DNA of 64,000 bases from Thalassotalea marina (GTDB taxonomy: Bacteria; Pseudomonadota; Gammaproteobacteria; Enterobacterales; Alteromonadaceae): NCBI RefSeq assembly GCF_014656435.1, contig NZ_BNCK01000001.1:62001-126000 (forward strand), given 5' to 3'. Positions 42,757-59,018 of this stretch are shown piece after piece. The translations under genes were made by a program, and so were the position numbers. A model generated the notes under the pieces. It did no database searches, was not told the DNA's origin, and saw nothing but the letters and a program-made list of their open reading frames with translations. Numbering within the stretch: the stretch's first letter is position 1; every line of letters begins with the position of its first letter.

Positions 42757-42759
42757 AAA

Positions 42760-43593: not shown

Positions 43594-43616
43594 ATTTGTA
43601 TTCTCCAACTTTTAGT

Positions 43617-44135
43617 TTAATTTTTTGTTAGTTGAACTTTGCCAAGTTCACTTTTGCCTGATGCAGTTAACGGTAGGTTGCTAGGGTTTAGTGGTAACTC
43701 AACAGGTATTTCTATTAATTCTCTACCACCTACTTCTCTGGCAGCTTCCACTCTTAACTTGTATTGTCCCGGTGCTTGTTTTGTTAATAGTTTACTTAAA
43801 TCTAGGGTGACAACATGGCTGCCTGGGCCTTTAGTAGCACCAGTTACACCATCAACAGGTAGCGCTAGTTTTCTGCCACCTTTACGCCACCACTGACGTA
43901 AATCGGCTAGCCACTCTTCGCCTTTTTTATTTTCCATTTCAACGTCATACCAAACAGCAACTTGGGTAACTTTACGTTGTGAATCTTCCAACCAAATGGC
44001 GACATAAGGTTTGTGATATTCAGCAACTTGTAATCGAGGAATATTTACCTCCAGCTGAAGCTTATCTTGCGCCTTAGCAATAAACGCACAGGATAAAAAA
44101 GTCATGATTAATATTAGGTTAGAAAGCTTTAACAC
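43617..44135 (-). CDS. DUF2271 periplasmic protein
   Basis: 172-aa protein with a signal peptide (residues 1-22, ending AKAQ) and the DUF2271 stretch PYVAIWLEDSQRKVTQVAVW, then WWRKGGRKLALPVDGVTGATKGPG. The frame is open to 44195, but GTG at 44135 has an excellent AAGGAGA ribosome site and avoids overlap with the PepSY gene. DUF2271 proteins commonly accompany PepSY proteins and TonB receptors; the biochemical role is unknown, possibly binding flavin or iron on the periplasmic side. Confidence 0.85.
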   Translation of the reverse strand: MLKLSNLILIMTFLSCAFIAKAQDKLQLEVNIPRLQVAEYHKPYVAIWLEDSQRKVTQVAVWYDVEMENKKGEEWLADLRQWWRKGGRKLALPVDGVTGATKGPGSHVVTLDLSKLLTKQAPGQYKLRVEAAREVGGRELIEIPVELPLNPSNLPLTASGKSELGKVQLTKN

Positions 44136-44151
44136 TGAGTTCTCCTTGTTG

Positions 44152-44754
44152 TTAATGCACGAATAACAGCAACAGTATTGCTGGAATAATCGCACCCAAA
44201 ATAGTTACCGGCCATGTCATCCAACGATGATTGGTTTGGCGGTAAAGTAGTAATAATCCAGTAAGACAAAATACAACGCAGGCTAGGGCAAAAATATCGA
44301 GAAACCAGCCCCAAACAACGCCAGTATCTCTACCTTTGTGTAAGTCATTAAAATAGGCTATCCAACCTCTATCAGTGCTTTCGTAACTTAGCTCACCATT
44401 GAGAAAATCTACTGAAAGCCAGGTATCAACACCAGGGCCTGCATGCACAACATACAGCTCTTCTTCCGACCATTCAGCGACTGCATGCTGAGAAAGCCGT
44501 ATACTGTGCGTTTGTGCAAGCCAGAAAACCAGTGATTTGGGCAAGGTTTGATCTGCGGTCTGTGCAACGAGCGTTAAGTCTTCCAAAACGCTCTTGGGCA
44601 AGTTCGATTCCACTTGGATTACTGTTGGCGATACTTTAATTTCACTGGCGTGATTTAATGTGATCCCAGTAATGGCAAAAAGCAGCATGCCTATAAGACA
44701 TGCTGCCGAACTTATCCAATGCCATTGTCTGACTGACCCTAAAGTCAACTGCAT
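44152..44754 (-). CDS. PepSY-associated TM protein (FoxB/FpvG-like)
   Basis: 200-aa inner-membrane protein with TM helices near residues 14-34, 147-168 and 178-198 and a periplasmic PepSY-type domain between. Histidines at the helix ends (RQWHW, LNHA, DLHKG, TNHRW) are positioned as possible haem-b ligands, as in FoxB/FpvG, which reduce ferric siderophores in the periplasm. It follows the TonB receptor gene by 48 bases. The reductase role is inferred from family and neighbours. Confidence 0.8.
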   Translation of the reverse strand: MQLTLGSVRQWHWISSAACLIGMLLFAITGITLNHASEIKVSPTVIQVESNLPKSVLEDLTLVAQTADQTLPKSLVFWLAQTHSIRLSQHAVAEWSEEELYVVHAGPGVDTWLSVDFLNGELSYESTDRGWIAYFNDLHKGRDTGVVWGWFLDIFALACVVFCLTGLLLLYRQTNHRWMTWPVTILGAIIPAILLLLFVH

Positions 44755-44802
44755 TTAGACTCCAAAAATAAATTGACGACACTTTACGTGTCGTCATCAT
44801 GA

Positions 44803-47175
44803 TTAAAAACTAACTGAAACACTAGCCCAAAAGTTACGAGCTTTGTCTTTTACGTTGTAATCATCTTCAAAAACAACTTCACTGACAACACCACGGCCAG
44901 TCAAATACTCATACTCGCCATCGCCATTTAGGTCGTCATAGCTAGTTGAGTATGATGTAAAATCTCTATCTAGTAAGTTGTTTACACGCAAGTTAACCAT
45001 CACATTGTCACTTAAGGTCCAACGTGCACCTAAATTAAGTAACGAGTAATTTTTGAAGTACAATTCACGCTCGTGAACTGAATCGTAACCGCGATATCTG
45101 TCTGAACGCACTTCACTTTGTAAATACACATCGATATCTTGGTTGATAGACCAGCTCACATTGAGGTTAGCCATATGCTCTGCAGTATTGGTTAGCGGTT
45201 GTCCTTCATAAGGGCCACTTTTTTGTTCGCTGTCTGTCCAAGTGTAGTTAGCATAAACAGACCATTGTTCGTTAAATTGGTAACGGCCCGCCATTTCAAC
45301 ACCTTTCAGTGATACTTCGTCGATGTTAATTTTTTGGCTATAGCTGGTGTAACCCAGTTGGTCGTACTGACCTAAGTTGACACATGGACGCACGTTGCCT
45401 GTAACTTCACAGCTTTGAATTGTGTCGCCACGCGCGATTTTATCTTCAAAATCAGTTTCAAAGTAGGTGATGTTGAAGTTGTGGTCGCCACGGCTCCAGT
45501 AAAGTGCAATTTCGCTGTTAACACTGGTTTCTGGCTCAAGTTCAGGGTTACCGGCAAAAGGGCTAGTGCCTTGTCCACCAAATCCAGTAATACCGTCATA
45601 TAAGTCTGTGGTTTGTGGTGTTTTATAACCTGTACTTACACCACCTTTCACTGTCCATTCGTCATTGATGTTATATACGGCGTAAAGTCTAGGTGATGTT
45701 TGGCTACCAAATACGTCGTGATCATCAAAACGTACACCTGCCGTTAAGGTAAAGCTATCTGAAATCATCCAGTTGTCTTCGGCAAACAGTGAATACATTT
45801 TTTGTTCTTGAATCGCACCTGCTTGTCCAGATTCAAGGCCAAAAACGCCATCTTTTAGCTCGCCGTCAATTGCTTGTAAACCAAGCACAAAGTTGTGATC
45901 TCCTGCTGCGTTGTCAATAGGAATATCAAAGCGTAAATCAAAAGTATATTGGCTGCTGTCTAATGGGCGATCTGGGCGCGGTAAGAAAGTTGCTTCAGCT
46001 AGATCACGACGCTCATCTTCGCTCATATCTGCATATTCACCAGTACCGTCATACATTTTTTGTAAAAGCTGACGTTCTGCAACACTTAATGGCAAAGTAC
46101 GGCCGTTGTTTTGTGTATCGACGTAGGCCAAAGAGGCAGAAACTGCACCAAAGCTGAATTCACCATCATAGGCTAATGACCACCATTGACGATCAAACTC
46201 TTGCTCAGCAGCGTAACCTGCACGAGGGTTTACTTGACCACGACGATCTTGCCAAAGCGCTTCAATGCTGTCTTTAGTACCCAGTGGATAAACAATGCTT
46301 CCAGTTTCGAGATTGTATCTTGGCGTGTTGTCATATTCTTGGTGAGAGTTGTCATAATCAAAAGAAAGCTCATGACCTTCAACTGGTGTGTAGTTAAGTG
46401 TAAAACCGTAGTGTTGGCTTTGATTATCAACTGTTTGACCGCCACTGCCAAAGCCTAATGAACGAGTATGAATTTTACCGTTTGGATCAACCGCTGGAGA
46501 AAATTCTGGTGATGAGGCTTGCTGTTCATAAATACTGGCGCGTAAACCCAAACTTAAAACGTTTTCGATAATAGGGCCGGCAACTGCTACGTCGGTGGTG
46601 ATGTCGTCACCAAAGTCATCATTTGACTGTAAACTGCGACCAAATGTAATAGTACCAGCCCAGTCTTTAGCGTGTTTTTTAGTGATCACATTAATAACAC
46701 CACCTAGTGCATCTGCACCATAAAGTGTTGATGCTGGACCACGAATAACTTCTACACGTTCAATGGTTTCTAAAGGAGGTAAGTGGTTAAACGCGTTACC
46801 ACCAAAATTATTTGGGTAGATATCACCATGGTTATTTTGGCGCTTGCCGTTGATAAGTAGCAAAGTGTATTCACCAGTTAAGCCACGCATGCTAACGCTA
46901 CCTTGGCCTGTTTTATCACGGCTTGTACCAATATCAATACCTTCTTGATATTTCACTACATCTAATAATGAAGTAAATGCGCGAGACTTAATATCGTCAG
47001 AAGTGATAATTGAAATGCTAGCTGGTGCTTGCGTTAGTTTTTGTTCAAAACCTGTGGCTGTAACAACTATAGTTTCAATTGCTTCTGGCTCAGGTGATGT
47101 GTTGGCTTGAGCTACATTAATAAAGGCAGCTTGCATGGCTAGAGCCACAGAGGAAAGTTTTACTAAAGAGTTCAT
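44803..47175 (-). CDS. TonB-dependent ferric siderophore receptor, FepA/CirA-like
   Basis: 790-aa outer-membrane receptor. Signal peptide to residue 24; the TonB box-like ETIVVTATG around 33-41; the plug domain runs to about 155 (VEVIRGPASTLYGADALGG); the 22-strand barrel ends in the C-terminal Phe (ASVSVSF). It resembles catecholate-type receptors. First gene of the receptor-PepSY-DUF2271-DUF4198-reductase operon. A perfect Fur box lies about 140 bases upstream in the gap shared with a divergent receptor gene. Confidence 0.93.
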   Translation of the reverse strand: MNSLVKLSSVALAMQAAFINVAQANTSPEPEAIETIVVTATGFEQKLTQAPASISIITSDDIKSRAFTSLLDVVKYQEGIDIGTSRDKTGQGSVSMRGLTGEYTLLLINGKRQNNHGDIYPNNFGGNAFNHLPPLETIERVEVIRGPASTLYGADALGGVINVITKKHAKDWAGTITFGRSLQSNDDFGDDITTDVAVAGPIIENVLSLGLRASIYEQQASSPEFSPAVDPNGKIHTRSLGFGSGGQTVDNQSQHYGFTLNYTPVEGHELSFDYDNSHQEYDNTPRYNLETGSIVYPLGTKDSIEALWQDRRGQVNPRAGYAAEQEFDRQWWSLAYDGEFSFGAVSASLAYVDTQNNGRTLPLSVAERQLLQKMYDGTGEYADMSEDERRDLAEATFLPRPDRPLDSSQYTFDLRFDIPIDNAAGDHNFVLGLQAIDGELKDGVFGLESGQAGAIQEQKMYSLFAEDNWMISDSFTLTAGVRFDDHDVFGSQTSPRLYAVYNINDEWTVKGGVSTGYKTPQTTDLYDGITGFGGQGTSPFAGNPELEPETSVNSEIALYWSRGDHNFNITYFETDFEDKIARGDTIQSCEVTGNVRPCVNLGQYDQLGYTSYSQKINIDEVSLKGVEMAGRYQFNEQWSVYANYTWTDSEQKSGPYEGQPLTNTAEHMANLNVSWSINQDIDVYLQSEVRSDRYRGYDSVHERELYFKNYSLLNLGARWTLSDNVMVNLRVNNLLDRDFTSYSTSYDDLNGDGEYEYLTGRGVVSEVVFEDDYNVKDKARNFWASVSVSF

Positions 47176-47328: not shown

Positions 47329-47420
47329 ATATAAATACTTATTCGGTGTGCAATTAAAGGACTTTTAGTTTAATTTTTGTGTGATTAATACATTATCTAA
47401 ATTATTTATTGAACTATAAT

Positions 47421-47435
47421 TGAAAATCATTATCA
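47421..47435. promoter_or_regulatory. Second Fur box, proximal to the rightward receptor
   Basis: TGAAAATCATTATCA differs from the Fur consensus at one position. It lies 33 bases upstream of the chosen GTG start and overlaps the start of the longer open frame, which argues that the longer frame is not translated. Confidence 0.82.
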
Positions 47436-47467
47436 TTCGCGTCGATATTCAACATTGGAACGCATAC

Positions 47468-49621
47468 GTGATAAAACTAACCAAAACCGCAATAATGATT
47501 GCCGCGATATTAAGCACACCGACTTTTGCGCAAAACTCTTCAGAGTTAAGCGAAGATAAACAAGCACAACAAGACATTGAAGTTATTTCCGTTACCGGAA
47601 GAGCGGTAAACTTATATCGTAACGGTGATTCCGCTACAGGGAAGTTAATTACAGACCCGTTAAATTCCACCCAAATGATCAGCTCTATCAACGAAAGTTT
47701 AATTCGTGACCAAGGCGCACGTGACGCTAAAGACTTATACCGAAACATTGCGGGTGTTAGTCAGTTTAGCTATGCAGGCGTTACCGCACGCGGCTTTAGA
47801 CAGGAAGAAATTTACTTTGATGGACTACGTGGTGACCCTTACGTGGGTTTTAACGTACCACAACTGTTTAACGTTGAGCGTGTCGATTTCTTGAAGGGCC
47901 CGGCTGGCATGTTATATGGTCCAGGGGCTCCAGGTGGTTTATTTAACTACGTTACCAAAAAGCCAAGCAGTGAATTTAGGGCGCAGGGGCGTATTATTGC
48001 TGGTACAGATAGTCGCTTTGGTGGCTCTTTGGAGTTAAATGGTGAAATTGCCGATAAACAAAATGCACGCGTGGCGGTGTTTCACGAGCAGCAAGATACC
48101 CATAGAGTACACAGTGATAGTGAAGTAACAATTGTTGATACTGGATATTCGCTAGAGCTGCAAGATTCTCTGTTAACTTTACAATACACACATTATCAAC
48201 AAGACCTAGCGGCAAACCGGTTACGTGGTGTGCCAGTAGATGATAATGGCAACTTTTTAACCGGAACTGACTGGAATCATAACGAGCCAAGTGATTTCTT
48301 AAATATGCGCTCTGATGTGTTGCAGGCATCGTTAGTTGGCCATTTAACTGGGCAACTTTCTTATGATGCAGCCATTCGTTACATCGATAATGAACAGGAG
48401 CAAAATTATCACGAGCCTAGAGCCTTAATTGACAGCAATGGCGATGGTCAAATTGATTTGGTCGGGCGCGAATTTAGAGATCAGTTGCGTGAACAGCAGC
48501 AATTATCATTTGGTATCAATTTTGTTTATGAAAGCCAATTATTGGGAGCTGAACAACGCACTGCATTTGGTGGTGATTATTATCAAGGTGAAGAAGACGC
48601 TTTGTTAGGTGGCGCAAAATTTTCTAAAGATCATATCAAGCGTTATTTAAGCAATAGCTCACTTGATTCTGATATTTTACCGCTTAGCTTGTTCAAGCCT
48701 AACTATGGTAAAACACAATCGAACAAGTACGATGTAAAGTTTCGCCCAAAGCGTAACACAGAACAAGAGCGCACAGGGGCGTATGTGCTAAATGAACTTG
48801 CTTGGCAGCAGTTTACTTTGGTTACCGGTGTGCGTTTTGACCAATTTGACGATACCTCGGGCACAGTGTCATTTGACGATAATAATGTCAGTTATCGATT
48901 AGGTGGTATATTCAAAGCTACTGACAACATCTCTTTTTATGCACAATGGGCTGATTCTTATGAGCCTCAGGGGGTTGGCAGTCAGAACGAACTTGTCGGT
49001 GGGCCATTTGAGCCAACGACAGGTACCATTGTTGAAGCTGGTCTTAACGCTGAACTATTTGATGACACTATGTTATTGCGTGTATCCACCTATCAAATTA
49101 AACGTCAAAATTTGTTGCAAGCAACGGGTTTAGATCCTGAAGGTGATGGTGAAGATAACTTAGCTGCTGTTGGAGAGGTAACCAGTGATGGTGTCGAAGT
49201 TGAGGTCATTGCTGATATTACTCCAGACTGGGTAGTCAGTGCTGCCTATGCCTACAATGATGCACAAATTACTAAAGGCGCTGGCGGTAGTGGTATTCGC
49301 AACAACGTTGGTGATCGCTTTGCCAATGCACCAAAAAATCAATTGGGCTTTTGGACTCGTTATCAACTGCCTGAACAACATTTAGCGTTTGCATTAGGTG
49401 GCAATTATGTTGATGAACAGTTAAGCCTGTCTGGACAAAAAGTGAAATCTTACTTTGTTGCCGATGCTTCAATTATTTTTGAAGTGGATGACTACAAAGT
49501 AATGTTTAGAATCGATAACTTGTTTGACAAAGAATATGCTGAATCTGGTTTTATTGACAGAACTGGGCATTTTCCGGGCAAACCACGCAGTGCTTTTGTT
49601 GAGTTTACCTATAACTGGTAA
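47468..49621 (+). CDS. TonB-dependent siderophore receptor, FhuA/FoxA type
   Basis: 717-aa outer-membrane receptor of the TIGR01783-type group. Signal peptide is residues 1-22 (ending TFAQ), plug domain with VSVTGRAVN-like TonB box region and FLKGPAGMLYGPGAPGG, then barrel ending FVEFTYNW. The open frame extends to 47420, but that overlaps a Fur box; GTG at 47468 gives a proper signal peptide and has GGA eight bases upstream. Probably hydroxamate or related siderophore; the ligand cannot be read from sequence. Confidence 0.92.
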   Translation: MIKLTKTAIMIAAILSTPTFAQNSSELSEDKQAQQDIEVISVTGRAVNLYRNGDSATGKLITDPLNSTQMISSINESLIRDQGARDAKDLYRNIAGVSQFSYAGVTARGFRQEEIYFDGLRGDPYVGFNVPQLFNVERVDFLKGPAGMLYGPGAPGGLFNYVTKKPSSEFRAQGRIIAGTDSRFGGSLELNGEIADKQNARVAVFHEQQDTHRVHSDSEVTIVDTGYSLELQDSLLTLQYTHYQQDLAANRLRGVPVDDNGNFLTGTDWNHNEPSDFLNMRSDVLQASLVGHLTGQLSYDAAIRYIDNEQEQNYHEPRALIDSNGDGQIDLVGREFRDQLREQQQLSFGINFVYESQLLGAEQRTAFGGDYYQGEEDALLGGAKFSKDHIKRYLSNSSLDSDILPLSLFKPNYGKTQSNKYDVKFRPKRNTEQERTGAYVLNELAWQQFTLVTGVRFDQFDDTSGTVSFDDNNVSYRLGGIFKATDNISFYAQWADSYEPQGVGSQNELVGGPFEPTTGTIVEAGLNAELFDDTMLLRVSTYQIKRQNLLQATGLDPEGDGEDNLAAVGEVTSDGVEVEVIADITPDWVVSAAYAYNDAQITKGAGGSGIRNNVGDRFANAPKNQLGFWTRYQLPEQHLAFALGGNYVDEQLSLSGQKVKSYFVADASIIFEVDDYKVMFRIDNLFDKEYAESGFIDRTGHFPGKPRSAFVEFTYNW

Positions 49622-49692: not shown

Positions 49693-50019
49693 TTAGTTCT
49701 CTTTACTAATTAATATCAGCTTACCCGTTTTAGGGTCTTTATACACTTGCCCCAGCGACTCCATTCCTTGAGTTTGTCCTTTTAATGCTTGGTCTAGCTG
49801 TGCTGGCAACTGGGTTAATTCCTTGCCAGCTTTTACCTCCAAAGTTTTATGTGCTGCGGTAATATTGAGTTTCTGCTGTAATTCTGGACTTTGGGCTACA
49901 AGGGCTAACATTAAGCCCAGTGAAAACACTAACATCACGTCCATAATATTGGCAAAACCTGCTAGCGGGTCACTTTCTTGCTCAGCAAAGGTAGAAGATT
50001 GCCACGATGGTTTAGTCAT
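49693..50019 (-). CDS. DUF2149 protein, ExbD-like partner of the CobN operon
   Basis: 108-aa membrane protein: a short cytoplasmic N-terminus, one TM helix (residues about 24-43, DPLAGFANIMDVMLVFSLGL) with Asp28 at the membrane edge like the proton-relaying Asp of ExbD/TolR, then a periplasmic part ending in VYKDPKTGKLILIS, the DUF2149 signature. Last gene of the operon, 13 bases after the ExbB-like gene. Probably forms the stator of a proton channel that powers the CobN-like protein. Role is inferred. Confidence 0.85.
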   Translation of the reverse strand: MTKPSWQSSTFAEQESDPLAGFANIMDVMLVFSLGLMLALVAQSPELQQKLNITAAHKTLEVKAGKELTQLPAQLDQALKGQTQGMESLGQVYKDPKTGKLILISKEN

Positions 50020-50032
50020 AATCTCGCTCCTA

Positions 50033-50545
50033 CTAATGACTGGCTACTTTACTTGGCTTTTGATGCTGTGTGATGTCAATCACTGCCGTTTCTTGTTGTT
50101 GAACAAGTTGCATATTTTGCCAAGTATTTTCATACCAACGTCTGCGCACTCGACCTATGATAAAAGCCACTAAACCGACTAGTAAGCCGATGACTGTGGT
50201 GTCAAAGGCGACCGTCAAGGCTGTCGCCAAGAGTTCAATATTGCCAGAGCCTAGTGCTGTTAGCCCTGGGCCTAATGGGATCAAGGTGCCCATTAAACCC
50301 AAAATAGGGCCAGAGCGTGCCAGCAAATCTACGCGCTCTAGTCGTTTAGTCGCGTAGTGTTTAAAGAGTTGTTCTGCTTGCAAACTCGCGATATTAAATT
50401 TAGTTAATGCAAAGGTAGGCTCCGCTATTGCTTTGCCCAGCTCCCATAAGGTGACAATAAGTGAAATGATCAAAGCAAATATTACTGGGTAAAGTAACAA
50501 GCCGACCAATAGGTGCAGTGCACCTTGTACTATGCCATATTCCAT
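50033..50545 (-). CDS. MotA/TolQ/ExbB-type proton channel protein
   Basis: 170-aa inner-membrane protein with three TM helices. The family core GPILGLMGTLIPLGPGLTAL (residues about 79-98) and the following TALTVAFDTTVIGLLVGLVA are the proton-channel helices. With DUF2149 it should form an ExbBD-like motor using the proton motive force. It begins 16 bases after the CobN-like gene, so it is dedicated to that protein rather than to general TonB function. Confidence 0.9.
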   Translation of the reverse strand: MEYGIVQGALHLLVGLLLYPVIFALIISLIVTLWELGKAIAEPTFALTKFNIASLQAEQLFKHYATKRLERVDLLARSGPILGLMGTLIPLGPGLTALGSGNIELLATALTVAFDTTVIGLLVGLVAFIIGRVRRRWYENTWQNMQLVQQQETAVIDITQHQKPSKVASH

Positions 50546-50561
50546 TGTTAAATCTCCTAGG

Positions 50562-53500
50562 CTAGTTGTTTGCGAGCTGCTTAGCTAATTGTTCTGATTG
50601 ACGTTTACTGCGATAAAAACCTGCAACAATCACCAATAAAACTCCAAGTGTAAGCCACCAAAGCCATTGACTAGTTTGCTCACCTCCCGCTTGTTGCTCT
50701 TGTGATTTTGGCGATTTTTGCTCACTAGCTGCATTTGGCTGAGAGGTGTCTGACTTTTTAGTTAGTGAATTGCTGTCTTGTTCAACCGTTAACTCGCTAA
50801 TGCGATGTACTTCAGTTTCGCTTTGCTCTATGTCACCTTTAGCCGACTTGATGGCTGAGGCTATCGCTTGAAACTCTTGTGCACTAAGATGTTGCTCTAG
50901 CCAAGGCAGCATCGGATTGTCAGGATCGGTGTGACCACTGCCTGGTAATCCATGTTGTGCCACTAAAGCCGAGAACTGTTGTGCCAAATCTTGGATAGTT
51001 TGCTCTGATGCTTGCCAAAATTCTTTTTGTATAGCGACTAACATTAAAGCCAACATATTGCTTTTAACATGAGCGTTATGGCCTTCGGCTAAAAAGCTAT
51101 CTAAATCGAGTTGATATCTATCATCAATGTAAATAGCTTTAACCTCTTCCCATGCCCAGTCGCCAACCAGTGTTGGGTTAGTGACTTGCCAGCCCCACAG
51201 GTATTCTAAAAACTCATTACCCATGGTACGGGCACCAGCATAACCATGTGCCATTTGACCTTTTAGCCATTCAGGGTTAAGAAAGCGTCCTCTTAATTCT
51301 TGTCTAAGTGCTAAGCCTAGAGGTCTAGTTTTCACTTGGTTAGGATCAGCATGGTCGATAACAAAGTTATTAGGTGCTTGGCCTGTAATGGATTCAATGG
51401 CTAAACTTAATCCGCCCAAATAATCAAAAGCATCGTTGTTATCAATTAAGCCATATAAATTACTTGAGCGGCCAAAATACGTATTTTCTACATTGGCCAG
51501 CGCTTGTTTAAAGGCCGTTTGAGCTGGCGCACCATAACCTGACAAACCGTAGCTGTGACCTAAACGTCGCATGTAGACCTTGGCAAGTTCTTCACGCTTT
51601 TCCCATGCGCCCGAACGCTCAACCAAACGGTTAATGCCCGCACCGTAACTGCCAGGTGCATCACCAAATACTCGATAAGCAGCGCTTGTGCCGGCGTCTT
51701 TAGCGCTTAAACCCGCCTGCATTGAAGCGCGCGTTTGTTTAACCCAATGAGCTGCCACTTGGTTTTGGCTAAGCGGTTCATTGCCACCTTTAGCATACTT
51801 GCCCAGTTGTGCTAAGGTTTCTGTTAATGCTAGGCTAAGAGCAGGGTGCTCTTTTTTAATAGTATCGGCACTGGCGTCTAGTGCCATCAACACGGCTTTA
51901 TCCACCAACACCATTTGTTGACTGTATAGATCTCTAAATAAACCCGACGTGGTAAACACCACATCACGACGGACACGATTATCCAGTGATTGATGCTTTA
52001 GACCTTTTACTAGCCCTCGGCTATTCCACACTGGCTCAAGACCTAACATGTCCAAACCAAAGGCGATCATCACCCCTTCATCACGCACTACATCAGAGGC
52101 CCATAAAATAACGGCTTCACGTTTATCCGCTGATTGCTGGTTATTTTTCCTAGCAGCCTGTGCCATTTCTTGACCGAGTTGCCAGGCTAAGCGGCTAGGG
52201 ATAAGTGAGCTATCTAGGGCATAAAAATTACGGCCTGTGGGTAAGCTGGCAGGGCTGCGAATAGGATCATTGCCTGGGCCTGGTGAAATGTAGCCGCCGC
52301 TTAATCCATTTAACAAACTTTGCATTTCGGATTGCGGCGAGGCGATCAGTCTCGCCTTTAATGATGCTTCACTTAAGGCATTGTCGCTGTTTAATGTCAG
52401 ATCCGCTGTTTGTGGATTTTTCGACATCATAGAGCTTAGCATCATCTCTATTGCGTTATCTTGCCAATCTTTGCCAAAAATATGCAAACCCAAAGGCATA
52501 AAACGCTCTTGTAAGTCCGTTAGGTAATGGCCAACTTCATGTACCAACATGTCATCGTCAACTTCTTCAAAACTGATGCCCATGATGGCAAGTTCAGCTG
52601 AAATGGCCTCGGCGATTTCATCTTTAAGCTCAAGCTGATCAACCTTGTCACGAATTTGTTTTACTAATCGTTGCTCAACCACTTCATTATCTGCGGCATG
52701 ACTGGCTTCAAAACTTTCAATAAGCTGGCGAAGTTGCAGTAATTGGTCATAAAGTGGTGTGCTGGAAAGTGGTGGTGTTAAATGATCTACCATCACCGCT
52801 AAACCACGGCGCTTAGCTTGAATACCTTCGCCGACACCATCAACAATGTAGGGATATACGCCGGGAATATCGCCACCAATAATGCGTGAATAATCATCTT
52901 GGGCTAGGCCAACAGAGCGTTTAGGTAAAAACTCATAGGTTGAGTGGCGGCCTAAATGTACTATGGCATCTGCTTTAAATTGGTTTTGTAAAAAGTGATA
53001 AAACGCCAAGTATTGATGTGGCGGTGGAAACGCTAAATTGGCATGTAGCAGTTCTTCATTTATTTCCCAGCCACGAGGTGGTTGAGGACCAATATAAATA
53101 TTGCCAAATTGAATGCCAGGGAATAACAACTTACCTTGATAGGTCATTACTTTGCCTGGTGCTTCGCCCCAGCCACCTAACCCTTCAATGCCAGTTTGTT
53201 GCAACGCAGTGATCACTTTAGGTGCTTCTGACATACAAGCGATTTGGTTAGATTTTTCAGAAATCGCTTGCTGATAACAATGTTCTAATTGTTCTAAAAG
53301 TGCGAGTGCACGAGCACGACCTTTGTGATCAACGCCTTCTAATAAATGATGCATTTCCTCGAGTGTATGATGCAGGGCGTCTTCTGCTAAATGTGGTTTA
53401 CCAGCTTGATTAGCTTGAATAATTTGTTGATGCAATAAGCCAAAAGGGCCATGTATCATTTCGTGTTTAATGGTTTCTGGCAGGGTGTTAAACCAAGTTT

Positions 53501-54977
53501 GGTATTCAGAGCCAGTCATGGTTTTAATATGTTGGCTCATGTTTGCGAGTGCTGCTGAGTCTCTGGGCAAATTAATGCCTTGCTGCTGCATTAAGTCCAA
53601 TAGTGCTTCTTGTGAGGCGGGTAATTGACCTGTGTGGTAGCCCGCTTTTTGTAGCTGATTGAGAATTTGCCAAAGTGATGCAGGAACGTCTAAATTATCG
53701 GCACCTATGTTATGTCGCCCCGGCGGATGATTGTAATAAATAATGGCGATTTTTTTATCTCGATTGGCCTTACGTTGTAAGTTGTGCCAGCGAGAAACTC
53801 GGGTTAACACGGAAGTAATGCCGCTCGGCTCTGCAACAACGCCTTGTACTTGTATACCGGTTAATGGATCTTGGTGAGAATCTCCTGCGGTGGCGATAAC
53901 TAAAGGCTGGCTGGCGCCTTGTAGTTCAGGCATGGCTACTTGGTAATAAACTTTATCGTGTGCTAATCCGTCAGACGATAATTGGCGTTCAATGGCTGAA
54001 CGGTCTCTTAATTTTATCGCTTTAATCACTGGGACATTGAGGGTGTCTAAGGCTTCGGTCACTTTTTCTCGACCCTCTCCACCTCCAATAACAAAGTCTT
54101 GCAACATGACAATTGCCGTTAACTGTTGCTTTATCTGTTTTAACTCTTGCGCTGCTAGAACACCAGCTTCTCCCCAAAATGCCAACGCTGAAATACATTG
54201 AATATCATGTGATGTTTGCACTTGCTGACACATGTCTCTGATAAGTTTTGCATCGGCAGGGCGATCGCCACCTGCATGATCAAGGATGGCGACAATCGGT
54301 TTGCTTTTATCCAAATCAGGTAGCTTAGATAAGCTAACTTGATGCTGACGTTGATCTGCTGTGTACCAGCGAAGCTGCGGTGTAGGTTGAGCTTTGTCGT
54401 AGCTGATGTTTTCATTCAGTTGGTGAAAAGACCAAGCAAAAAGTTGCGCGGTATTTTCAGCGCCTTTAGCCTGCCAATAAGATCTTGCTTCTAGCCATTT
54501 ACTTTGTTGCGGATGAATTTCTTGCAGACGGCTTAACGCTTGCAAAAAATTATCCCCTAGGCGATTAGCGGAGATATCACGAGCATGTTGTTGATCGCGA
54601 AAAACTTTAACGCCATTAATTTGGCTTAATGCAACCAGACGATGATCACTGTTTAAGATAATTTTATCTTGTTTACTTTGCTGAAATAGGGGCGTGAGGT
54701 GAGCAACTGTACCACCAAATAAGCCAATTCCAATAATGCCTTGGCTGTTATTAACCAATTGCGCTAACGCTTGATCAGACATGGCACTAATTTGGCTGTC
54801 TGTTCTTGCTTTAATAGTAAAATGTTGCTGGCTTGGGTGTGCTAATTGAAATAAACGCGCCGCCTCTGCAATAGTTTCTGCATTGCGCTGCGAGCTAAGC
54901 ACTAATAAGTAATTTTCGTTTACATTGGCCATAACATGTTGGCAAAACAACATGGCCAATAAAATCAAAATGCGCAT
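50562..54977 (-). CDS. Periplasmic, membrane-anchored CobN-like (de)chelatase
   Basis: 1471-aa protein of the CobN/magnesium-chelatase H-subunit family. Unlike cytoplasmic CobN (about 1275 aa), it has a signal peptide (residues 1-17, ending HVMA) and, after a Ser/Gln/Glu-rich linker, a C-terminal TM helix (about 1436-1453) with a basic tail, so the catalytic body should be periplasmic. Family stretches include PPGRHNIGADN, HLGRHSTYEFLPKRSVGL, and GDAPGSYGAGINRL. No CobS/CobT is present; instead ExbB-like and DUF2149 genes follow. This matches, to my knowledge, the HmuS-type proteins of Bacteroidetes haem loci. Haem iron release or a corrinoid reaction are both possible. Confidence 0.88.
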   Translation of the reverse strand: MRILILLAMLFCQHVMANVNENYLLVLSSQRNAETIAEAARLFQLAHPSQQHFTIKARTDSQISAMSDQALAQLVNNSQGIIGIGLFGGTVAHLTPLFQQSKQDKIILNSDHRLVALSQINGVKVFRDQQHARDISANRLGDNFLQALSRLQEIHPQQSKWLEARSYWQAKGAENTAQLFAWSFHQLNENISYDKAQPTPQLRWYTADQRQHQVSLSKLPDLDKSKPIVAILDHAGGDRPADAKLIRDMCQQVQTSHDIQCISALAFWGEAGVLAAQELKQIKQQLTAIVMLQDFVIGGGEGREKVTEALDTLNVPVIKAIKLRDRSAIERQLSSDGLAHDKVYYQVAMPELQGASQPLVIATAGDSHQDPLTGIQVQGVVAEPSGITSVLTRVSRWHNLQRKANRDKKIAIIYYNHPPGRHNIGADNLDVPASLWQILNQLQKAGYHTGQLPASQEALLDLMQQQGINLPRDSAALANMSQHIKTMTGSEYQTWFNTLPETIKHEMIHGPFGLLHQQIIQANQAGKPHLAEDALHHTLEEMHHLLEGVDHKGRARALALLEQLEHCYQQAISEKSNQIACMSEAPKVITALQQTGIEGLGGWGEAPGKVMTYQGKLLFPGIQFGNIYIGPQPPRGWEINEELLHANLAFPPPHQYLAFYHFLQNQFKADAIVHLGRHSTYEFLPKRSVGLAQDDYSRIIGGDIPGVYPYIVDGVGEGIQAKRRGLAVMVDHLTPPLSSTPLYDQLLQLRQLIESFEASHAADNEVVEQRLVKQIRDKVDQLELKDEIAEAISAELAIMGISFEEVDDDMLVHEVGHYLTDLQERFMPLGLHIFGKDWQDNAIEMMLSSMMSKNPQTADLTLNSDNALSEASLKARLIASPQSEMQSLLNGLSGGYISPGPGNDPIRSPASLPTGRNFYALDSSLIPSRLAWQLGQEMAQAARKNNQQSADKREAVILWASDVVRDEGVMIAFGLDMLGLEPVWNSRGLVKGLKHQSLDNRVRRDVVFTTSGLFRDLYSQQMVLVDKAVLMALDASADTIKKEHPALSLALTETLAQLGKYAKGGNEPLSQNQVAAHWVKQTRASMQAGLSAKDAGTSAAYRVFGDAPGSYGAGINRLVERSGAWEKREELAKVYMRRLGHSYGLSGYGAPAQTAFKQALANVENTYFGRSSNLYGLIDNNDAFDYLGGLSLAIESITGQAPNNFVIDHADPNQVKTRPLGLALRQELRGRFLNPEWLKGQMAHGYAGARTMGNEFLEYLWGWQVTNPTLVGDWAWEEVKAIYIDDRYQLDLDSFLAEGHNAHVKSNMLALMLVAIQKEFWQASEQTIQDLAQQFSALVAQHGLPGSGHTDPDNPMLPWLEQHLSAQEFQAIASAIKSAKGDIEQSETEVHRISELTVEQDSNSLTKKSDTSQPNAASEQKSPKSQEQQAGGEQTSQWLWWLTLGVLLVIVAGFYRSKRQSEQLAKQLANN

Positions 54978-55032: not shown

Positions 55033-55278
55033 GACAAATAGGCGAAGCACACCCCCACAAGAGTGGTGGTGCTTATTTGACTTGTCGAGTATTCTCGCTC
55101 GATGAGTAATACCGACTCGACTAAATATTTGGTCAAATATTTAATTGAATTGGTATAAGACTTTGTGACATGTATCTGGCTTCTATTGTTTGCAATAAAA
55201 CAATAGCTACAGTTGCGAGTACAGCTCCGGATTAACGTTATACCAATTGAATTAAATATTTATTTCAATTGGTATTAT
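55033..55278. repeat. Composite palindromic repeat element (MITE/REP-like)
   Basis: A gene-free stretch built of nested inverted repeats. CAAATA...AAGCAC / GTGCTT...TATTTG at 55035-55079; GTCGAGT / ACTCGAC at 55084-55121; a 23-base arm at 55136-55158 that is the reverse complement (one mismatch) of 55238-55260; CTATTGTT / AACAATAG at 55183-55206; and TACCAATTGAA / TTCAATTGGTA at 55241-55274. TATACCAATT-type intergenic repeats are, to my recollection, common in Colwellia relatives. Confidence 0.6.
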
Positions 55279-55453
55279 TCAACGACGACCGGATTCCATG
55301 TGGTTATTTAAAACACACAAAATCGGCACGGATTTAATCGCTAAAACAGTTTCATGTCAAGAAAATCGCAGATTAAACTACCAAGCAAGCCGGTGGTAAG
55401 CCGTTGTCATATCTATTGAAAAATACTAAATACTCGGGTAAAGTGCCCAGCTA

Positions 55454-55629
55454 CATAGGTGCCTTAATTGACTTTAAAAAAAGAGCCAATGAGGTGAAAC
55501 GTGAAACAGGTGAAATACCTGTGCTGCCCCCGCAACGGTAACTGCGAGCATCAACAAATTAACCACTGTATGTTGTCATATGGGAAGGTGTTGTAATGCG
55601 ATGAACAGAAGCCCGGAGACCGGCCTATG
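55454..55629 (+). promoter_or_regulatory. Cobalamin riboswitch
   Basis: Carries the conserved core GAAACAGGTGAAATACCTGT, then GCTGCCCCCGCAACGGTAA, and the B12 box AGCCCGGAGACCGGCC at its 3' end. P1 is CATAGG (55454-55459) with CCTATG (55624-55629). It controls the downstream membrane protein and probably the corrinoid genes after it, shutting them off when adenosylcobalamin is plentiful. Confidence 0.93.
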
Positions 55630-55664
55630 AGAACTCTAAACTGCGGTGGGCGGCTTATTCAGAG

Positions 55665-55747
55665 TAAGGCAACAGATCACAATTGGGTAAACCCTCGCCT
55701 TAACTGTGTAGCTTGTTTACCGTTAATCTTGATTAGCGGAACAGTTA
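55665..55747 (+). promoter_or_regulatory. Possible translational expression platform of the riboswitch
   Basis: TAACTGT (55701-55707) can pair with ACAGTTA (55741-55747), closing a hairpin that encloses the ribosome site AGCGGA and the first base of the start codon. TAAGGC (55665-55670) can pair with GCCTTA (55697-55702), which competes for the same strand. No T-run terminator is present, so control of translation is likely. Confidence 0.45.
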
Positions 55748-56411: not shown

Positions 56412-57032
56412 TTGTCAGATTCTATTTCTATCCTGCTTGCCAGACATGGCGAAACCTATTGGAATACCACCCAACGTTTACAAGGACATCTTGATAGCCA
56501 GTTAACCGTCAAAGGTCAAAATCAAGCAAAAAAATTAGCGCAAACCTTTGCAAACTATGGTGTTAAAACCGTACTTAGTTCAACACTACCCCGAGCATTA
56601 AATACAGCCAAGGTCTATGCCAATAACCGTGTTATTCCCTTAATTACCGATCCTCGTTTGATGGAGCGTCATTTTGGCGTGTGGCAAGGGCAGACGATGG
56701 CGAGTTTAAAGCAGCAAAAAAGTTACCATGAAGTGTTTTATCAATTTAGCTCTACAGCCCCGCCAGAGGGAGAGAGTGCTCTGGTAGCAGCAAGGCGCTT
56801 TCGTCAAGCACTAGCGCAGCACATAATGTCTTTACGTAGCGATTTAAATATATCAAAAGCCGTGTTGCCACCTATAGGTGTGGTCAGTCACGGAGAAGTG
56901 TTACGCTGTTTTTTAGCCAGTATTGACAGCCGTTGGCAACAAGCAAATAAAAATGCCAGCGAGCTTTTTGTTAATGGCGGTGTTACTGCGCTTAACTTTA
57001 ATCGGCAAACACAGGAATTTTCCTTATGTTGA
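56412..57032 (+). CDS. cobC: Histidine phosphatase, probable alpha-ribazole phosphatase
   Basis: 206-aa member of the phosphoglycerate-mutase-like phosphatases. LLARHGET carries the catalytic Arg11-His12; the second His is in GVVSHGEVLRCF; RHFGVWQGQ has the conserved acid region. Next to CbiB and CobD it should remove phosphate from alpha-ribazole phosphate in nucleotide-loop assembly. The start is probably TTG at 56412; no in-frame ATG fits. It overlaps the next gene by seven bases. Confidence 0.85.
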   Translation: MSDSISILLARHGETYWNTTQRLQGHLDSQLTVKGQNQAKKLAQTFANYGVKTVLSSTLPRALNTAKVYANNRVIPLITDPRLMERHFGVWQGQTMASLKQQKSYHEVFYQFSSTAPPEGESALVAARRFRQALAQHIMSLRSDLNISKAVLPPIGVVSHGEVLRCFLASIDSRWQQANKNASELFVNGGVTALNFNRQTQEFSLC

Positions 57033-57976
57033 TGCCTATGTTGTTTGTTACGTTAACTTTGGCGGTGCTAATTGATGCGTGGTTAGGCGAAGTAAAGCGT
57101 TTTCACCCCTTGGAGGGATTTGGCCATATCGCCAATGCCTTTGAGCGAACGCTTAATTGTGGCGGTAACAAGCAGCAATTTATCTTCGGTAGCATCGCTT
57201 GGCTGGCAATAGTGTTGCCCGTGCCAATAGCGCTTTATGTTATGGGTCAGCTACTGGCAAATTATTCCATATGGCTAGTGCTAGCTCTAGATGTAGCTGT
57301 CATTTATTTTGCTATTGGTCTTAACAGTTTATCGCAACACGGTATGCAAATTTATCATGCACTTAAAGCAAATGATTTACCTTTAGCGAGGCAATATTGT
57401 GGTTATATTGTGAGTCGTGATACTTCTAGTTTATCAGAGCAAGATATCAGTCGAGCGACGGTAGAATCGATGTTAGAAAACAGCCATGATGCGGTGACCG
57501 CAACCTTAATATGTTATTTGATTGGTGGCGCACCATTAGTTGTATTGCATCGACTCGCTAATACACTGGATGCAATGTGGGGCTATAAAAATCAGCGTTT
57601 TTGCTATTTTGGTAAATTTGCCGCGCGTGCTGATGATGTATTGGGTTTTATCCCTGCAAAGCTGACCGCGGTCTTGTACGCATTAATGTCTGGCGGTCGG
57701 ATTAAAAACATACTGGTTAATGCCTACCAACAAGCAAAGCACTATAAAAGTCACAATGGTGGCTGGGTGATGTCTGCTGGGGCATCACTGATGAAGATAT
57801 CGCTCGGTGGTGGACAAGCGATGTATGGTAACAAAACCTACACATCACCAACCTTAGGAGATGGTCGGTTGGTCAATGCACAAGATATTGCCACTAGCCT
57901 GCGTAACGTTAATTATATGGTTTCCTTGCTACTGATCTTAGTGTTATTCGCTGAGGTGTTGATTCAAGTAAGTTAA
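57026..57976 (+). CDS. cbiB: Adenosylcobinamide-phosphate synthase CbiB
   Basis: 316-aa inner-membrane enzyme that attaches aminopropanol phosphate to adenosylcobyric acid. Family features: LIDAWLGEVKRFHPLEGFG at the N-terminus, VSRDTSSLSEQDISRATVES in the middle, and GGGQAMYGNKTYTSPTLGDG near the end. About four or five TM helices. Start ATG 57026, with a second ATG at 57032. Works with CobD encoded directly downstream, which supplies aminopropanol phosphate. Confidence 0.94.
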   Translation: MLMPMLFVTLTLAVLIDAWLGEVKRFHPLEGFGHIANAFERTLNCGGNKQQFIFGSIAWLAIVLPVPIALYVMGQLLANYSIWLVLALDVAVIYFAIGLNSLSQHGMQIYHALKANDLPLARQYCGYIVSRDTSSLSEQDISRATVESMLENSHDAVTATLICYLIGGAPLVVLHRLANTLDAMWGYKNQRFCYFGKFAARADDVLGFIPAKLTAVLYALMSGGRIKNILVNAYQQAKHYKSHNGGWVMSAGASLMKISLGGGQAMYGNKTYTSPTLGDGRLVNAQDIATSLRNVNYMVSLLLILVLFAEVLIQVS

Positions 57977-57992
57977 GACTATTGAGAATGTT

Positions 57993-59018
57993 ATGTTAAA
58001 AGCAAAAAACGCCCAACCTCTGGTTCACGGTGGTCAGCTAACTAAGGTGGCAAGTCAATATGACTTTCCTTTGAGTGAATGGCTTGATTTATCAACCGGC
58101 ATTGCGCCCTTTAGTTATCCTATTCCTGAGATCCCACTCTCTATTTGGCAAAATTTACCAAGCGATCAACAAGCGTTAATTAACGCGGCAAAACACTATT
58201 ATCAAAGCGATTATTGTTTAGTGTCTAATGGCAGCCAACCGGTGATTGAATTGTTACCTGCACTTTGGTTAGAAAAAAACACCTTACCCGCAAGTCAAAT
58301 AACCGTGTATTTACCGCAAGTGGGTTACAAAGAGCACCAAAAAGCGTGGCAACTAGCTGGCTTTGAGCTTAGTTTTTATCAAGATGCCTTACCGCAGCAC
58401 ATTAAGGCCAACTCAGTTGTTGTGGTGATTAATCCCAATAACCCGTCAGGCAAGCTATATGAGTTAAACGCTTTAATTGAACTACAACAGCGTTGTCAGT
58501 TACAAGGAGCCTTGTTGGTTGTTGATGAAGCTTTTATTGATGTTATTGCACCTAGCCAGTCTATCATTGCCAACCTAGCTGAGAACACGCTTGTATTACG
58601 GTCTTTTGGTAAGTTTTTTGGTTTAGCGGGTATTCGTATAGGTTTTGTTTGTTGTCAGCAAGCTTGGTATCAGCAAATTAAAGCCCAATGTGGCCCGTGG
58701 CAAGTGAATGGGCCGGCACTTTTTATCGCCGAAAAAGCATTATTAGATACTCAATGGCAACAACAGCAAAGAGCCAAACTTGTGCAACAGCAACAACAAT
58801 TAAGTGAGCTGTTATCCTCATGTGGTTTTGAGCAGCAGGTAGGCTGCAGTTTGTTTATTACCTGTTATTGCGACCATGCTGCAGAACGCTATCAAACGCT
58901 TTGTCAGCACGGTATCTATGTGCGCTTAACTGATGAGCAAGATGCCTTGCGATTTGGTATTCCAAACACTGAGCAAATTAAAATATTGAAAGAACGTTTA
59001 ACAAAGATATTCTCTTAA
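57993..59018 (+). CDS. cobD: L-threonine-O-3-phosphate decarboxylase CobD
   Basis: 341-aa PLP enzyme of the class I/II aminotransferase fold that makes (R)-1-amino-2-propanol phosphate for CbiB. The PLP lysine lies in LRSFGKFFGLAGIRIG; VVINPNNPSGKLY and the VDEAFID motif are visible; the N-terminus has HGGQLTKVASQ and LDLSTGIAPF, typical of CobD rather than HisC. Gap of 16 bases to cbiB. CobU, CobS and CobT homologues are not in the window. Confidence 0.92.
   Translation: MLKAKNAQPLVHGGQLTKVASQYDFPLSEWLDLSTGIAPFSYPIPEIPLSIWQNLPSDQQALINAAKHYYQSDYCLVSNGSQPVIELLPALWLEKNTLPASQITVYLPQVGYKEHQKAWQLAGFELSFYQDALPQHIKANSVVVVINPNNPSGKLYELNALIELQQRCQLQGALLVVDEAFIDVIAPSQSIIANLAENTLVLRSFGKFFGLAGIRIGFVCCQQAWYQQIKAQCGPWQVNGPALFIAEKALLDTQWQQQQRAKLVQQQQQLSELLSSCGFEQQVGCSLFITCYCDHAAERYQTLCQHGIYVRLTDEQDALRFGIPNTEQIKILKERLTKIFS

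What the first reader, a model, noticed from the sequence alone, without database searches (positions are those of the whole stretch)
49693..54977. Periplasmic CobN-like protein with its own ExbB/DUF2149 proton motor
The CobN-like protein has a signal peptide and C-terminal TM anchor, placing a chelatase-fold body in the periplasm, and is followed by an ExbB-like channel and a DUF2149 protein with an ExbD-like membrane Asp. No CobS/CobT AAA partners are present, so ATP is replaced, by inference, with proton motive force. The nearest described relatives are HmuS-type proteins at Bacteroidetes haem loci. Here the set sits between a siderophore receptor and a cobalamin salvage locus, so it could remove iron from haem or act on corrinoids.
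Basis: partly seen in the sequence, partly recalled or inferred. Interest (0 to 1): 0.8.

Follow-up and report, generated by a model that had tools for sequence, protein, structure and literature searches.

The report
B12-regulated exported cobalt chelatase with motor
A large chelatase-type protein exported to the outer side of the inner membrane comes with its own predicted proton-driven motor and belongs, by regulation and gene company, to vitamin B12 metabolism rather than haem iron uptake, so it may put cobalt into B12 precursors without the usual ATP-driven partners.

Summary
Observation confirmed. The operon 49,693-54,977 (minus strand) encodes a 1471-aa CobN-family protein with signal peptide and C-terminal TM tail, an ExbB-like channel and a DUF2149 protein with an invariant membrane Asp.

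The protein falls in its own clade (26 rows, SH-aLRT 100), apart from HmuS-type and cytosolic CobN. The same genome has a separate HmuR-HmuY-HmuS-like locus. B12-riboswitch boxes lie upstream in 63 of 76 relatives' loci (HmuS-type loci: 3 of 21 anywhere); cobalamin genes within 9 kb in 35 of 80 (HmuS-type: 0 of 21). In the window this operon carries a sub-threshold riboswitch-like element, and the divergent BtuM-like/CobC/CbiB/CobD operon a clear one.

Most carrier genomes lack corrin-ring synthesis (15 of 18; 45 of 49). Four genomes with aerobic (late-cobalt) synthesis have the exported protein as only CobN and no recognisable ChlI/ChlD. I favour a pmf-driven periplasmic corrinoid-metallating enzyme; cobalt insertion is inferred. 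Related clusters are in print (BtuS; Geobacter lovleyi; Bacteroides) without a settled role.

The parts
50562..54977 (-). CobN-family chelatase large subunit, exported; HLGRHSTYEFLP motif (residues 674-685); Asp1182 at the place of HmuS His1209
   Evidence: PF02514 853.4 bits; clade P; site table
50616..50666 (-). C-terminal transmembrane tail (about residues 1438-1454), positive charges after it
   Evidence: hydropathy; C-terminal TM stretch in 78 of 78 full-length relatives; Gly1453 invariant in 17 rows
50033..50545 (-). ExbB/TolQ-like channel subunit, three long helices; T87 and T117 invariant in 51 rows
   Evidence: PF01618 over cut-off; A5; AF2 mean pLDDT 93.4; Foldseek TolQ/ExbB, probability 1.00 but E 0.015
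49693..50019 (-). DUF2149: one TM helix with Asp27 (NIMDVMLVF) invariant in 52 rows, then a short conserved hairpin
   Evidence: PF09919 over cut-off; A4; AF2 mean pLDDT 71.1, pTM 0.30
55150..55334 (-). variant B12-riboswitch-like element in front of the CobN-like operon
   Evidence: RF00174 25.1 bits, below gathering 31.5, E 2.8e-4 in an 801-base search; conserved in the window and 5 relatives; over gathering in L072 (37.5) and L073 (37.0); exact B12 box at 55208-55225 (converted from L090)
55441..55642 (+). canonical cobalamin riboswitch of the divergent salvage operon
   Evidence: RF00174 104.4 bits
55627..56352 (+). BtuM-like inner-membrane cobalamin transporter; the first ATG lies inside the riboswitch, so the ATG at 55747 is the more likely start
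   Evidence: PDB 8c7p 'Cobalamin ABC transporter' E 2.4e-17; the name BtuM is my own label, from recall
56412..57032 (+). CobC-like histidine phosphatase
   Evidence: PF00300; TIGR03162 98 bits, below its cut-off 162.9
57026..57976 (+). CbiB adenosylcobinamide-phosphate synthase
   Evidence: TIGR00380 182.9 bits, cut-off 165.9
57993..59018 (+). CobD-like threonine-phosphate decarboxylase
   Evidence: similar to the annotated CobD of L191

Best explanation
The operon encodes a B12-regulated, exported class I chelatase (BtuS-type) that handles corrinoids in the periplasm. Shown by sequence: the gene set, the export signals, the separate clade, B12 boxes, cobalamin gene company, and the usual absence of recognisable ATPase partners. 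Inferred: when B12 is short, corrinoids that crossed the outer membrane are bound by the CobN-like body; the ExbB-like/DUF2149 pair lets protons through and moves the body by way of its TM tail, doing what the CobST or ChlID ATPases do for cytosolic CobN; cobalt is inserted into rings that lack it; the finished corrinoid is taken in by a BtuM-like or BtuF-type importer and completed by CobB, CobQ, CbiB, CobD and CobC. In a few lineages the same enzyme would serve as the late cobaltochelatase of aerobic de novo synthesis.
For: Own clade. B12 box (up to 2 mismatches) within 900 nt upstream in 48 of 76 usable loci and farther upstream on the same strand in 15 more; shuffles 0 of 1520; HmuS-type loci 3 of 21. 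Cobalamin genes within 9 kb in 35 of 80; HmuS-type 0 of 21. Operons with CobB, BtuR, CbiB, CobD, CobQ, BluB, CbiZ, BtuM-like. PF02570 absent in 15 of 18 and 45 of 49 carrier genomes, yet CobB found in 35 of 50 of the 60 that lack it, the own genome included, behind its own riboswitch. In G089, G236 and G121 the set lies in one cluster with CobA, CobG, CobH, CobI, CobJ and CobL and is the only PF02514 protein; likewise the only one in G417, which has a CobG-like gene elsewhere. TIGR02442 reaches at most 50.8 bits in these four against 337.7 in the positive control G406. DUF2149 genes, found without regard to CobN, lie within 4 kb of a CobN-family gene in 18 of 19 cases.
Against: No activity, metal, substrate or complex was tested. 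Uptake of metal-free corrinoids as a nutrient was not seen in the one listing I searched for it. Substrate made in the cytosol would have to be exported in the de novo genomes; the ABC-2 pair in three of them is only a candidate. 45 of 80 loci (some of them short) show no cobalamin gene within 9 kb and 13 of 76 no B12 box upstream. G143 holds a CobT with CobT_C domain (190.6 bits) beside an AAA_5 gene, away from its exported CobN, so a CobST-like pair co-occurs in 1 of 18. CobT was not searched in G417, CobS alone in none. A Marinobacter plasmid relative lacks TM tail and motor genes in its 22 kb stretch. G423 and G433 have CbiD and CbiG, the anaerobic route, where late insertion is not needed. 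The window's own riboswitch-like element is below Rfam's gathering score.
Confidence: 0.5

Rival explanations
1. Corrinoid uptake device rather than a metal enzyme: the CobN-like body binds corrinoids in the periplasm and the ExbB/DUF2149 motor drives their release or hand-over, or energises a TonB for the B12 receptor.
For: A TBDR lies in 36 of 80 named loci and a TonB-C protein in L036, L042 and L154; a Geobacter lovleyi cobN-exbB-exbD-tonB cluster was read as transport (PMC3403914, passages); most carriers lack ring synthesis.
Against: The cavity His (HmuS His538) is kept in 26 of 26; DUF2149 lies by a CobN-family gene in 18 of 19 cases, receptors less regularly; the exported protein is the only CobN in four aerobic genomes; Methanosarcina acetivorans, an archaeon without outer membrane (recalled), rings for all three families (control lines; gene order not seen).
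Confidence: 0.27
2. Haem de-chelatase of the HmuS kind that frees iron from haem.
For: Best PDB hit is HmuS 9d26; same three-part set as hmuS with ExbB-like and DUF2149 genes in Bacteroides and Prevotella; a siderophore-type receptor lies next door. The lack of HmuS haem ligands M79/H254 is weak evidence, because HmuY-linked proteobacterial HmuS-type proteins mostly lack them too.
Against: Separate clade; no long insertion between domains; B12 boxes and gene company; the genome has its own HmuRYS-like locus.
Confidence: 0.07
3. Cobalt is removed from corrinoids (de-chelation) to supply cobalt or discard unusable corrinoids.
For: The exported relative with published enzymology, HmuS, works in the removing direction (PMC12583661: abstract, passages, sections 5, 12, 14, 23).
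Against: Genes behind B12 riboswitches are expected to be highest when B12 is short, when destroying corrinoids makes little sense; being the only CobN in four aerobic genomes calls for insertion.
Confidence: 0.08
4. Zinc or cobalt acquisition, as discussed for the Zur-controlled P. aeruginosa PA1922-PA1925 operon.
For: PA1922-1925 holds a TBDR, a cobN-like and an ExbD-like gene and is strongly raised on zinc depletion (PMC4542158, PMC8531726, PMC13083405, passages).
Against: Pseudomonas and Azotobacter-type members of the present clade (L111, L114, L117-L122) carry B12 boxes upstream. I did not obtain the PA1923 sequence and do not know its clade.
Confidence: 0.04

Closest known systems
HmuS with HmuU/HmuV (Bacteroides, Porphyromonas hmu operon)
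   Same: Exported, membrane-anchored class I chelatase fold with ExbB-like and DUF2149 genes
   Different: Different clade; no HmuY, B12 instead of haem context; lacks M79/H254, His1209 and the long insertion, though proteobacterial HmuS-type rows also lack the first two in 15 of 15 and 14 of 15
CobN of CobNST or CobN-ChlID (aerobic B12 synthesis)
   Same: Class I chelatase family; His538 position kept; Asp at the His1209 position in 5 of 5 cytosolic rows; cobalamin operons; only CobN in four aerobic genomes
   Different: Exported with TM tail; ExbB/DUF2149 instead of AAA+ partners; HxGxHS instead of HxGxHG (25 of 26 rows by pattern); separate clade
BtuS, a third CobN-related type (Rodionov 2003, as cited in PMC6460266)
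   Same: Predicted exported CobN-like proteins; may be the same or a sister group
   Different: B. fragilis BtuS1/2 were linked to haem-iron use (PMC6460266, passages); the 2003 paper itself was not read
B12-riboswitch Hmu-like operons of Bacteroidetes (PMC10100974)
   Same: A cobalamin riboswitch in front of an Hmu-like set, read there as perhaps cobalamin metabolism (passages)
   Different: Not compared by sequence here
Geobacter lovleyi pSZ77 cobN-exbB-exbD-tonB cluster (PMC3403914)
   Same: CobN-like gene with ExbB/ExbD-like genes by cobalamin genes, no CobS/CobT; biochemical role left open (passages)
   Different: Read there as transport; not compared by sequence here
TolQ/ExbB and ExbD/TolR motors
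   Same: ExbB-like fold; TM helix with invariant Asp
   Different: DUF2149 shows no ExbD-type periplasmic domain in a low-confidence model and no PDB match

Membership tests
HmuS haem de-chelatase | haem ligands Met79 and His254 | tested here: not met
   0 of 26 rows of the window's clade have either; 2 of 2 Bacteroidota rows have both; but of 15 proteobacterial HmuS-type rows 0 have Met79 and 1 has His254, so the test separates poorly
HmuS haem de-chelatase | LSLDHxxEFMGG with His1209 and Glu1212 | tested here: not met
   Asp in 26 of 26 at both places; 12 of 15 proteobacterial HmuS-type rows also have Asp at 1209
HmuS haem de-chelatase | Met-rich insertion in domain IV | tested here: not met
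   106 residues in the window protein against 296 in 9d26 between the same flanking matches
HmuS haem de-chelatase | hmu operon with HmuY and receptor | tested here: not met
   no HmuY label in the 80 named loci, against 10 of 21 HmuS-type loci
HmuS haem de-chelatase | hydrophobic stretches at both ends and cavity His538 | tested here: met
   the N-terminus looks like a cleaved signal peptide rather than an anchor (by eye)
CobN cobaltochelatase (CobNST or CobN-ChlID) | AAA+ partners CobS/CobT or ChlI/ChlD that go with the gene | tested here: not met
   TIGR02442 at most 57.3 bits in 18 genomes against 337.7 in the control G406, which itself stays under the family cut-off; PF06213 over cut-off in 3 of 18: G000 and G089 in DUF3150 blocks, G143 as a CobST-like pair away from its exported CobN. 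CobS alone not searched
CobN cobaltochelatase (CobNST or CobN-ChlID) | cytosolic protein | tested here: not met
   hydrophobic N-terminus and TM tail
CobN cobaltochelatase (CobNST or CobN-ChlID) | NCBIfam equivalog cut-off | tested here: not met
   best 637.4 bits against cut-off 1619; TIGR02257 527.9 against 822.05
[quoted passage not shown]
   needs the purified complex
ExbB/TolQ/MotA | PF01618 and three-helix fold | tested here: met
   36.4 bits over 22.9; Foldseek probability 1.00 to TolQ/ExbB, E 0.015, none at E 0.001 or better
ExbD/TolR | membrane Asp | tested here: met
   Asp27 invariant in 52 of 52; equivalence to the Asp of ExbD is recalled
ExbD/TolR | family profile and periplasmic domain | tested here: not met
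   only DUF2149 scores in Pfam at E 0.001; no PDB match by profile or fold (low-confidence model)
Cobalamin riboswitch RF00174, in front of this operon | gathering score 31.5 | tested here: inconclusive
   25.1 bits in the window; 37.5 and 37.0 in relatives L072 and L073

The most novel reading that the evidence does not exclude
A proton-motive-force-driven cobaltochelatase working in the periplasm: the ExbB/DUF2149 motor stands in for the CobST/ChlID ATPases, metallating scavenged metal-free corrinoids in most carriers and, in a few lineages (G089, G236, G121, probably G417), acting as the only late cobaltochelatase of aerobic B12 synthesis, in three of them possibly with an ABC exporter that first carries the cobalt-free corrin across the inner membrane.
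Probability: 0.35. Interest if true: 0.88.

Novelty: new variant of a known kind. Interest (0 to 1): 0.62.

Why it matters
Class I chelatases are textbook ATP machines (a large subunit plus AAA+ motor). If the exported CobN clade metallates corrinoids with an ExbB-type motor, the same chemistry is run by the proton gradient on the other side of the membrane, and metal-free corrinoids become a shared resource between bacteria. It would also explain how at least three genomes with a CobG-type aerobic pathway manage without CobST or ChlID, give DUF2149 (uncharacterised in Pfam) a role as chelatase motor subunit, and separate a B12 branch from the haem (HmuS) branch where databases call both 'cobaltochelatase subunit CobN'. 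All of this can be tested in culturable marine and soil bacteria with plain deletions.

Tried and rejected
Haem role: considered first because HmuS is the best structural hit; set aside on clade, regulation and gene company. The haem-ligand test was less telling than hoped, since proteobacterial HmuS-type proteins mostly lack the ligands too.

CobS/CobT elsewhere in the genome: the PF06213 hit in G000 lies in a DUF3150/AAA/VWA block that looks mobile. G143 has a more CobST-like pair; it was not followed further.

TIGR02442 cut-off: not usable as such, because the positive control G406 with separate ChlI and ChlD genes also stays below it; bit scores were compared instead.

Structure of DUF2149: low confidence, fold search without meaning. 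The DUF2149 search of plasmids found nothing although annotated DUF2149 genes exist on plasmids in that collection, so it was too insensitive to count. No complex could be predicted, as the tool folds single chains.

Promoter and terminator scans were no better than shuffles for promoters (7 found, mean 12.4) and little above for terminators (9 found, mean 6.0, sd 2.6); not used. A covariance model of the variant riboswitch was considered and not built; an 18-base box was counted instead.

Siderophore receptor 47420-49621: not a conserved neighbour. PA1923 of P. aeruginosa could not be placed.

Full report
What is there. The three genes lie on the minus strand with gaps of 16 and 13 nt: a 1471-aa PF02514 protein (853.4 bits), a 170-aa PF01618 protein (36.4 bits, cut-off 22.9) and a 108-aa PF09919 protein (51.9 bits, cut-off 27.1). 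The first has a signal-peptide-like start (by eye) and a C-terminal TM stretch followed by positive charges. Its cavity motif is HLGRHSTYEFLP. The ExbB-like protein models well as three long helices (mean pLDDT 93.4) and matches TolQ/ExbB structures (Foldseek probability 1.00, best E 0.015, none at 0.001 or better). DUF2149 has one TM helix with Asp27 invariant in 52 of 52 relatives; its model is poor (pLDDT 71.1, pTM 0.30) and matches nothing in the PDB.

Surroundings. Divergently, a cobalamin riboswitch (55441-55642, 104.4 bits) precedes a transporter similar to PDB 8c7p 'Cobalamin ABC transporter' (E 2.4e-17; BtuM-like is my label), a CobC-like phosphatase, CbiB and a CobD-like gene. In front of the CobN-like gene lies a second, variant riboswitch-like element, 55150-55334 on the minus strand: 25.1 bits, below the gathering score of 31.5, E 2.8e-4 in a search of 801 bases. 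Its core is conserved in the window and five relatives, and in L072 and L073 it passes gathering with 37.5 and 37.0 bits. The siderophore-type receptor downstream (47420-49621, convergent) is not a conserved neighbour.

A second, different copy. The same genome holds another PF02514 protein (1385 aa, L005) directly behind a TonB receptor and a PF14064 HmuY protein, that is an Hmu-like locus; no riboswitch was found there. So the two branches exist side by side in one cell.

Distribution and clade. In the window's family, 36 of 118 genomes have some match and 9 of 118 (own included) a full-length orthologue at 50% identity or more. In the class, DUF2149 occurs in 18 of 274 genomes, 19 genes; 18 of the 19 lie within 4 kb of a CobN-family gene, the exception being a lone ExbB/DUF2149 pair in the own genome. 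A scan of species genomes confirmed 280 relatives of the window protein, of which the best 80 were kept. In a quick maximum-likelihood tree of 50 rows the window's group (26 rows) is one side of a branch with SH-aLRT 100; HmuS-type rows (17) are one side of a branch with 93, below the program's star of 95; cytosolic CobN and BchH rows fall outside both. The tree is unrooted, so which branch is closer to which is open.

Regulation and company. Taking the B12 box (18 bases, up to 2 mismatches), 48 of 76 loci with enough upstream sequence have it within 900 nt upstream of the CobN-like gene and 15 more have it farther upstream on the same strand; 13 have none. Shuffled upstream stretches gave 0 of 1520, and HmuS-type loci 3 of 21, either strand and anywhere. 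The box was derived from riboswitches of this clade, and loci are related, so these are not independent counts. Rfam itself found riboswitches over gathering in 13 of the 17 relatives' loci searched (L036-L042, L072, L073, L076-L078 and two per locus in some; none in L034, L035, L071, L074 or L075, where L035 has a TPP match) and in none of the HmuS-type loci L005, L082, L083, L087; counting loci one by one this is 12 of 17, and I use 12. Cobalamin genes lie within 9 kb in 35 of 80 named loci (two or more in 28) and in 0 of 21 HmuS-type loci, which instead have a receptor in 21 of 21 and HmuY in 10 of 21. Partners seen include CobB, BtuR, CobQ, CbiB, CobD, BluB, BtuF, BtuM-like and CbiZ.

Salvage and de novo. 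PF02570 (CobH/CbiC) is absent in 15 of 18 and 45 of 49 carrier genomes. At least three genomes are in both sets (G390/G307, G436/G310, G419/G202, by equal contig length), so about 64 distinct genomes, 57 without. Of the 60 entries without PF02570, 50 were searched for CobB and 35 have it (two pairs counted twice, so 34 of 48 distinct). The own genome has CobB and a BtuF-like gene behind a further riboswitch. Keeping CobB without ring synthesis suggests intake of early, incompletely amidated corrinoids.

Genomes that do make the ring. Seven of these carriers have PF02570. G089, G236 and G121 have the set in one cluster with CobA, CobB, an ABC-2 transporter pair, CobG, CobH, CobI, CobJ and CobL (named by NCBIfam for G236, by similarity for the others). 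Each has a single PF02514 protein, the exported one. G417 (locus L140, Zhongshania marina) also has only the exported one and a CobG-like gene by similarity and NIR_SIR domains. G406 (L120, Azotobacter chroococcum) has in addition a cytosolic CobN of 1248 aa with a ChlI-like gene. G423 and G433 have CbiD and CbiG, hence the anaerobic route. TIGR02442 gives 337.7 bits in G406 but at most 50.8, 37.8, 31.4 and 26.7 in G417, G121, G236 and G089. PF06213 (CobT) is absent in G236 and G121, present in G089 only as a DUF3150-type block, and was not searched in G417. CobS alone was not searched. So in at least G236 and G121 the aerobic pathway has no candidate cobaltochelatase other than the exported one. 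This is the strongest sign of cobalt insertion, and it is a missing-gene argument.

Active site. The His of HmuS position 538 is kept in all 50 rows. At position 1209 the window's clade has Asp in 26 of 26, as do cytosolic CobN rows (5 of 5) but also 12 of 15 proteobacterial HmuS-type rows. HmuS haem ligands M79 and H254 are missing in 26 of 26, but also in 15 of 15 and 14 of 15 proteobacterial HmuS-type rows. The residues therefore do not by themselves tell haem from corrin.

How it most likely works. Exported body and TM tail (shown by sequence), ExbB-like channel and DUF2149 with a membrane Asp (shown by sequence), dedicated to CobN-family proteins (18 of 19), without ATPase partners in most genomes. 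Inferred: proton flow through the pair moves the TM tail and opens or closes the cavity. A Marinobacter plasmid copy that has lost the TM tail also lacks the two motor genes in its 22 kb stretch, which fits coupling between tail and motor but also shows a relative without them. Because the genes are B12-regulated, insertion or capture fits better than removal of cobalt.

What is known. HmuS is an established haem de-chelatase (PMC12583661: abstract, passages, sections 5, 12, 14, 23), whose authors say most members of the superfamily cannot be reliably annotated. BtuS was proposed as a third CobN type in 2003, seen only as cited in PMC6460266 (passages). B12-riboswitch Hmu-like operons were noted in Bacteroidetes (PMC10100974, passages). 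A cobN-exbB-exbD-tonB cluster without CobST was described in Geobacter lovleyi in 2012 with its role open (PMC3403914, passages). PA1922-PA1925 is a Zur-controlled set (PMC4542158, PMC8531726, PMC13083405, passages). I saw no paper that assigns a pmf-driven corrinoid chelatase; the searches were made, in open-licence PMC papers only. Other passages seen: PMC6072759, PMC7689651, PMC10846266, PMC7857532 and PMC13227078 (also its section 21).

Verdict. Real, not ordinary, and more specific than first thought: a B12 branch of exported, motor-linked CobN proteins. Export, clade and B12 link I hold at about 0.9; a corrinoid-metallating enzyme driven by pmf at 0.5.

Noticed in passing
L005:5105-12417 (own genome, contig C5): TonB receptor, HmuY lipoprotein and HmuS-like protein in a row: a second, haem-type CobN-family locus in the same genome.
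   Followed up: partly
L030:9352-10253 (own genome, contig C7): Lone ExbB-like plus DUF2149 pair with no CobN-family gene in the 19 kb held; perhaps the motor of the HmuS-like protein elsewhere.
   Followed up: partly
L182:4938-12146 (own genome, contig C2): CobT-like VWA, AAA_5/CbbQ_C, DUF3150 and RadC-like genes together, resembling a mobile-element block.
   Followed up: partly
L184:7276-10045 (genome G143): AAA_5 gene and a CobT with CobT_C domain side by side, away from the exported CobN of that genome.
   Followed up: no
L191:8920-13122 (Marinobacter sp. M3C plasmid): Relative of the window CobN with signal-peptide-like start but no C-terminal TM and no ExbB-like or DUF2149 match in 22 kb.
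   Followed up: partly
L174-L176 (genomes G089, G236, G121): ABC-2 type ATPase and permease pair between CobA and CobG inside the cobalamin cluster; candidate exporter of a corrin intermediate.
   Followed up: no
L073:7927-12381 (genome G321): CobN-like reading frame interrupted by a TGA; decay or sequencing error.
   Followed up: no
window 41479-47175 (-): Receptor 44803-47175 with PepSY_TM-like, DUF2271, DUF4198 and a flavodoxin/reductase gene: a separate locus, probably for iron.
   Followed up: no
window 55042-55120 (-): Conserved GCGAGAATACTC stretch between the variant riboswitch-like element and the CobN start in the relatives aligned; possible expression platform.
   Followed up: no
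L035:9847-9977: TPP riboswitch directly after the CobN-ExbB-DUF2149 set, in front of a TonB receptor.
   Followed up: no
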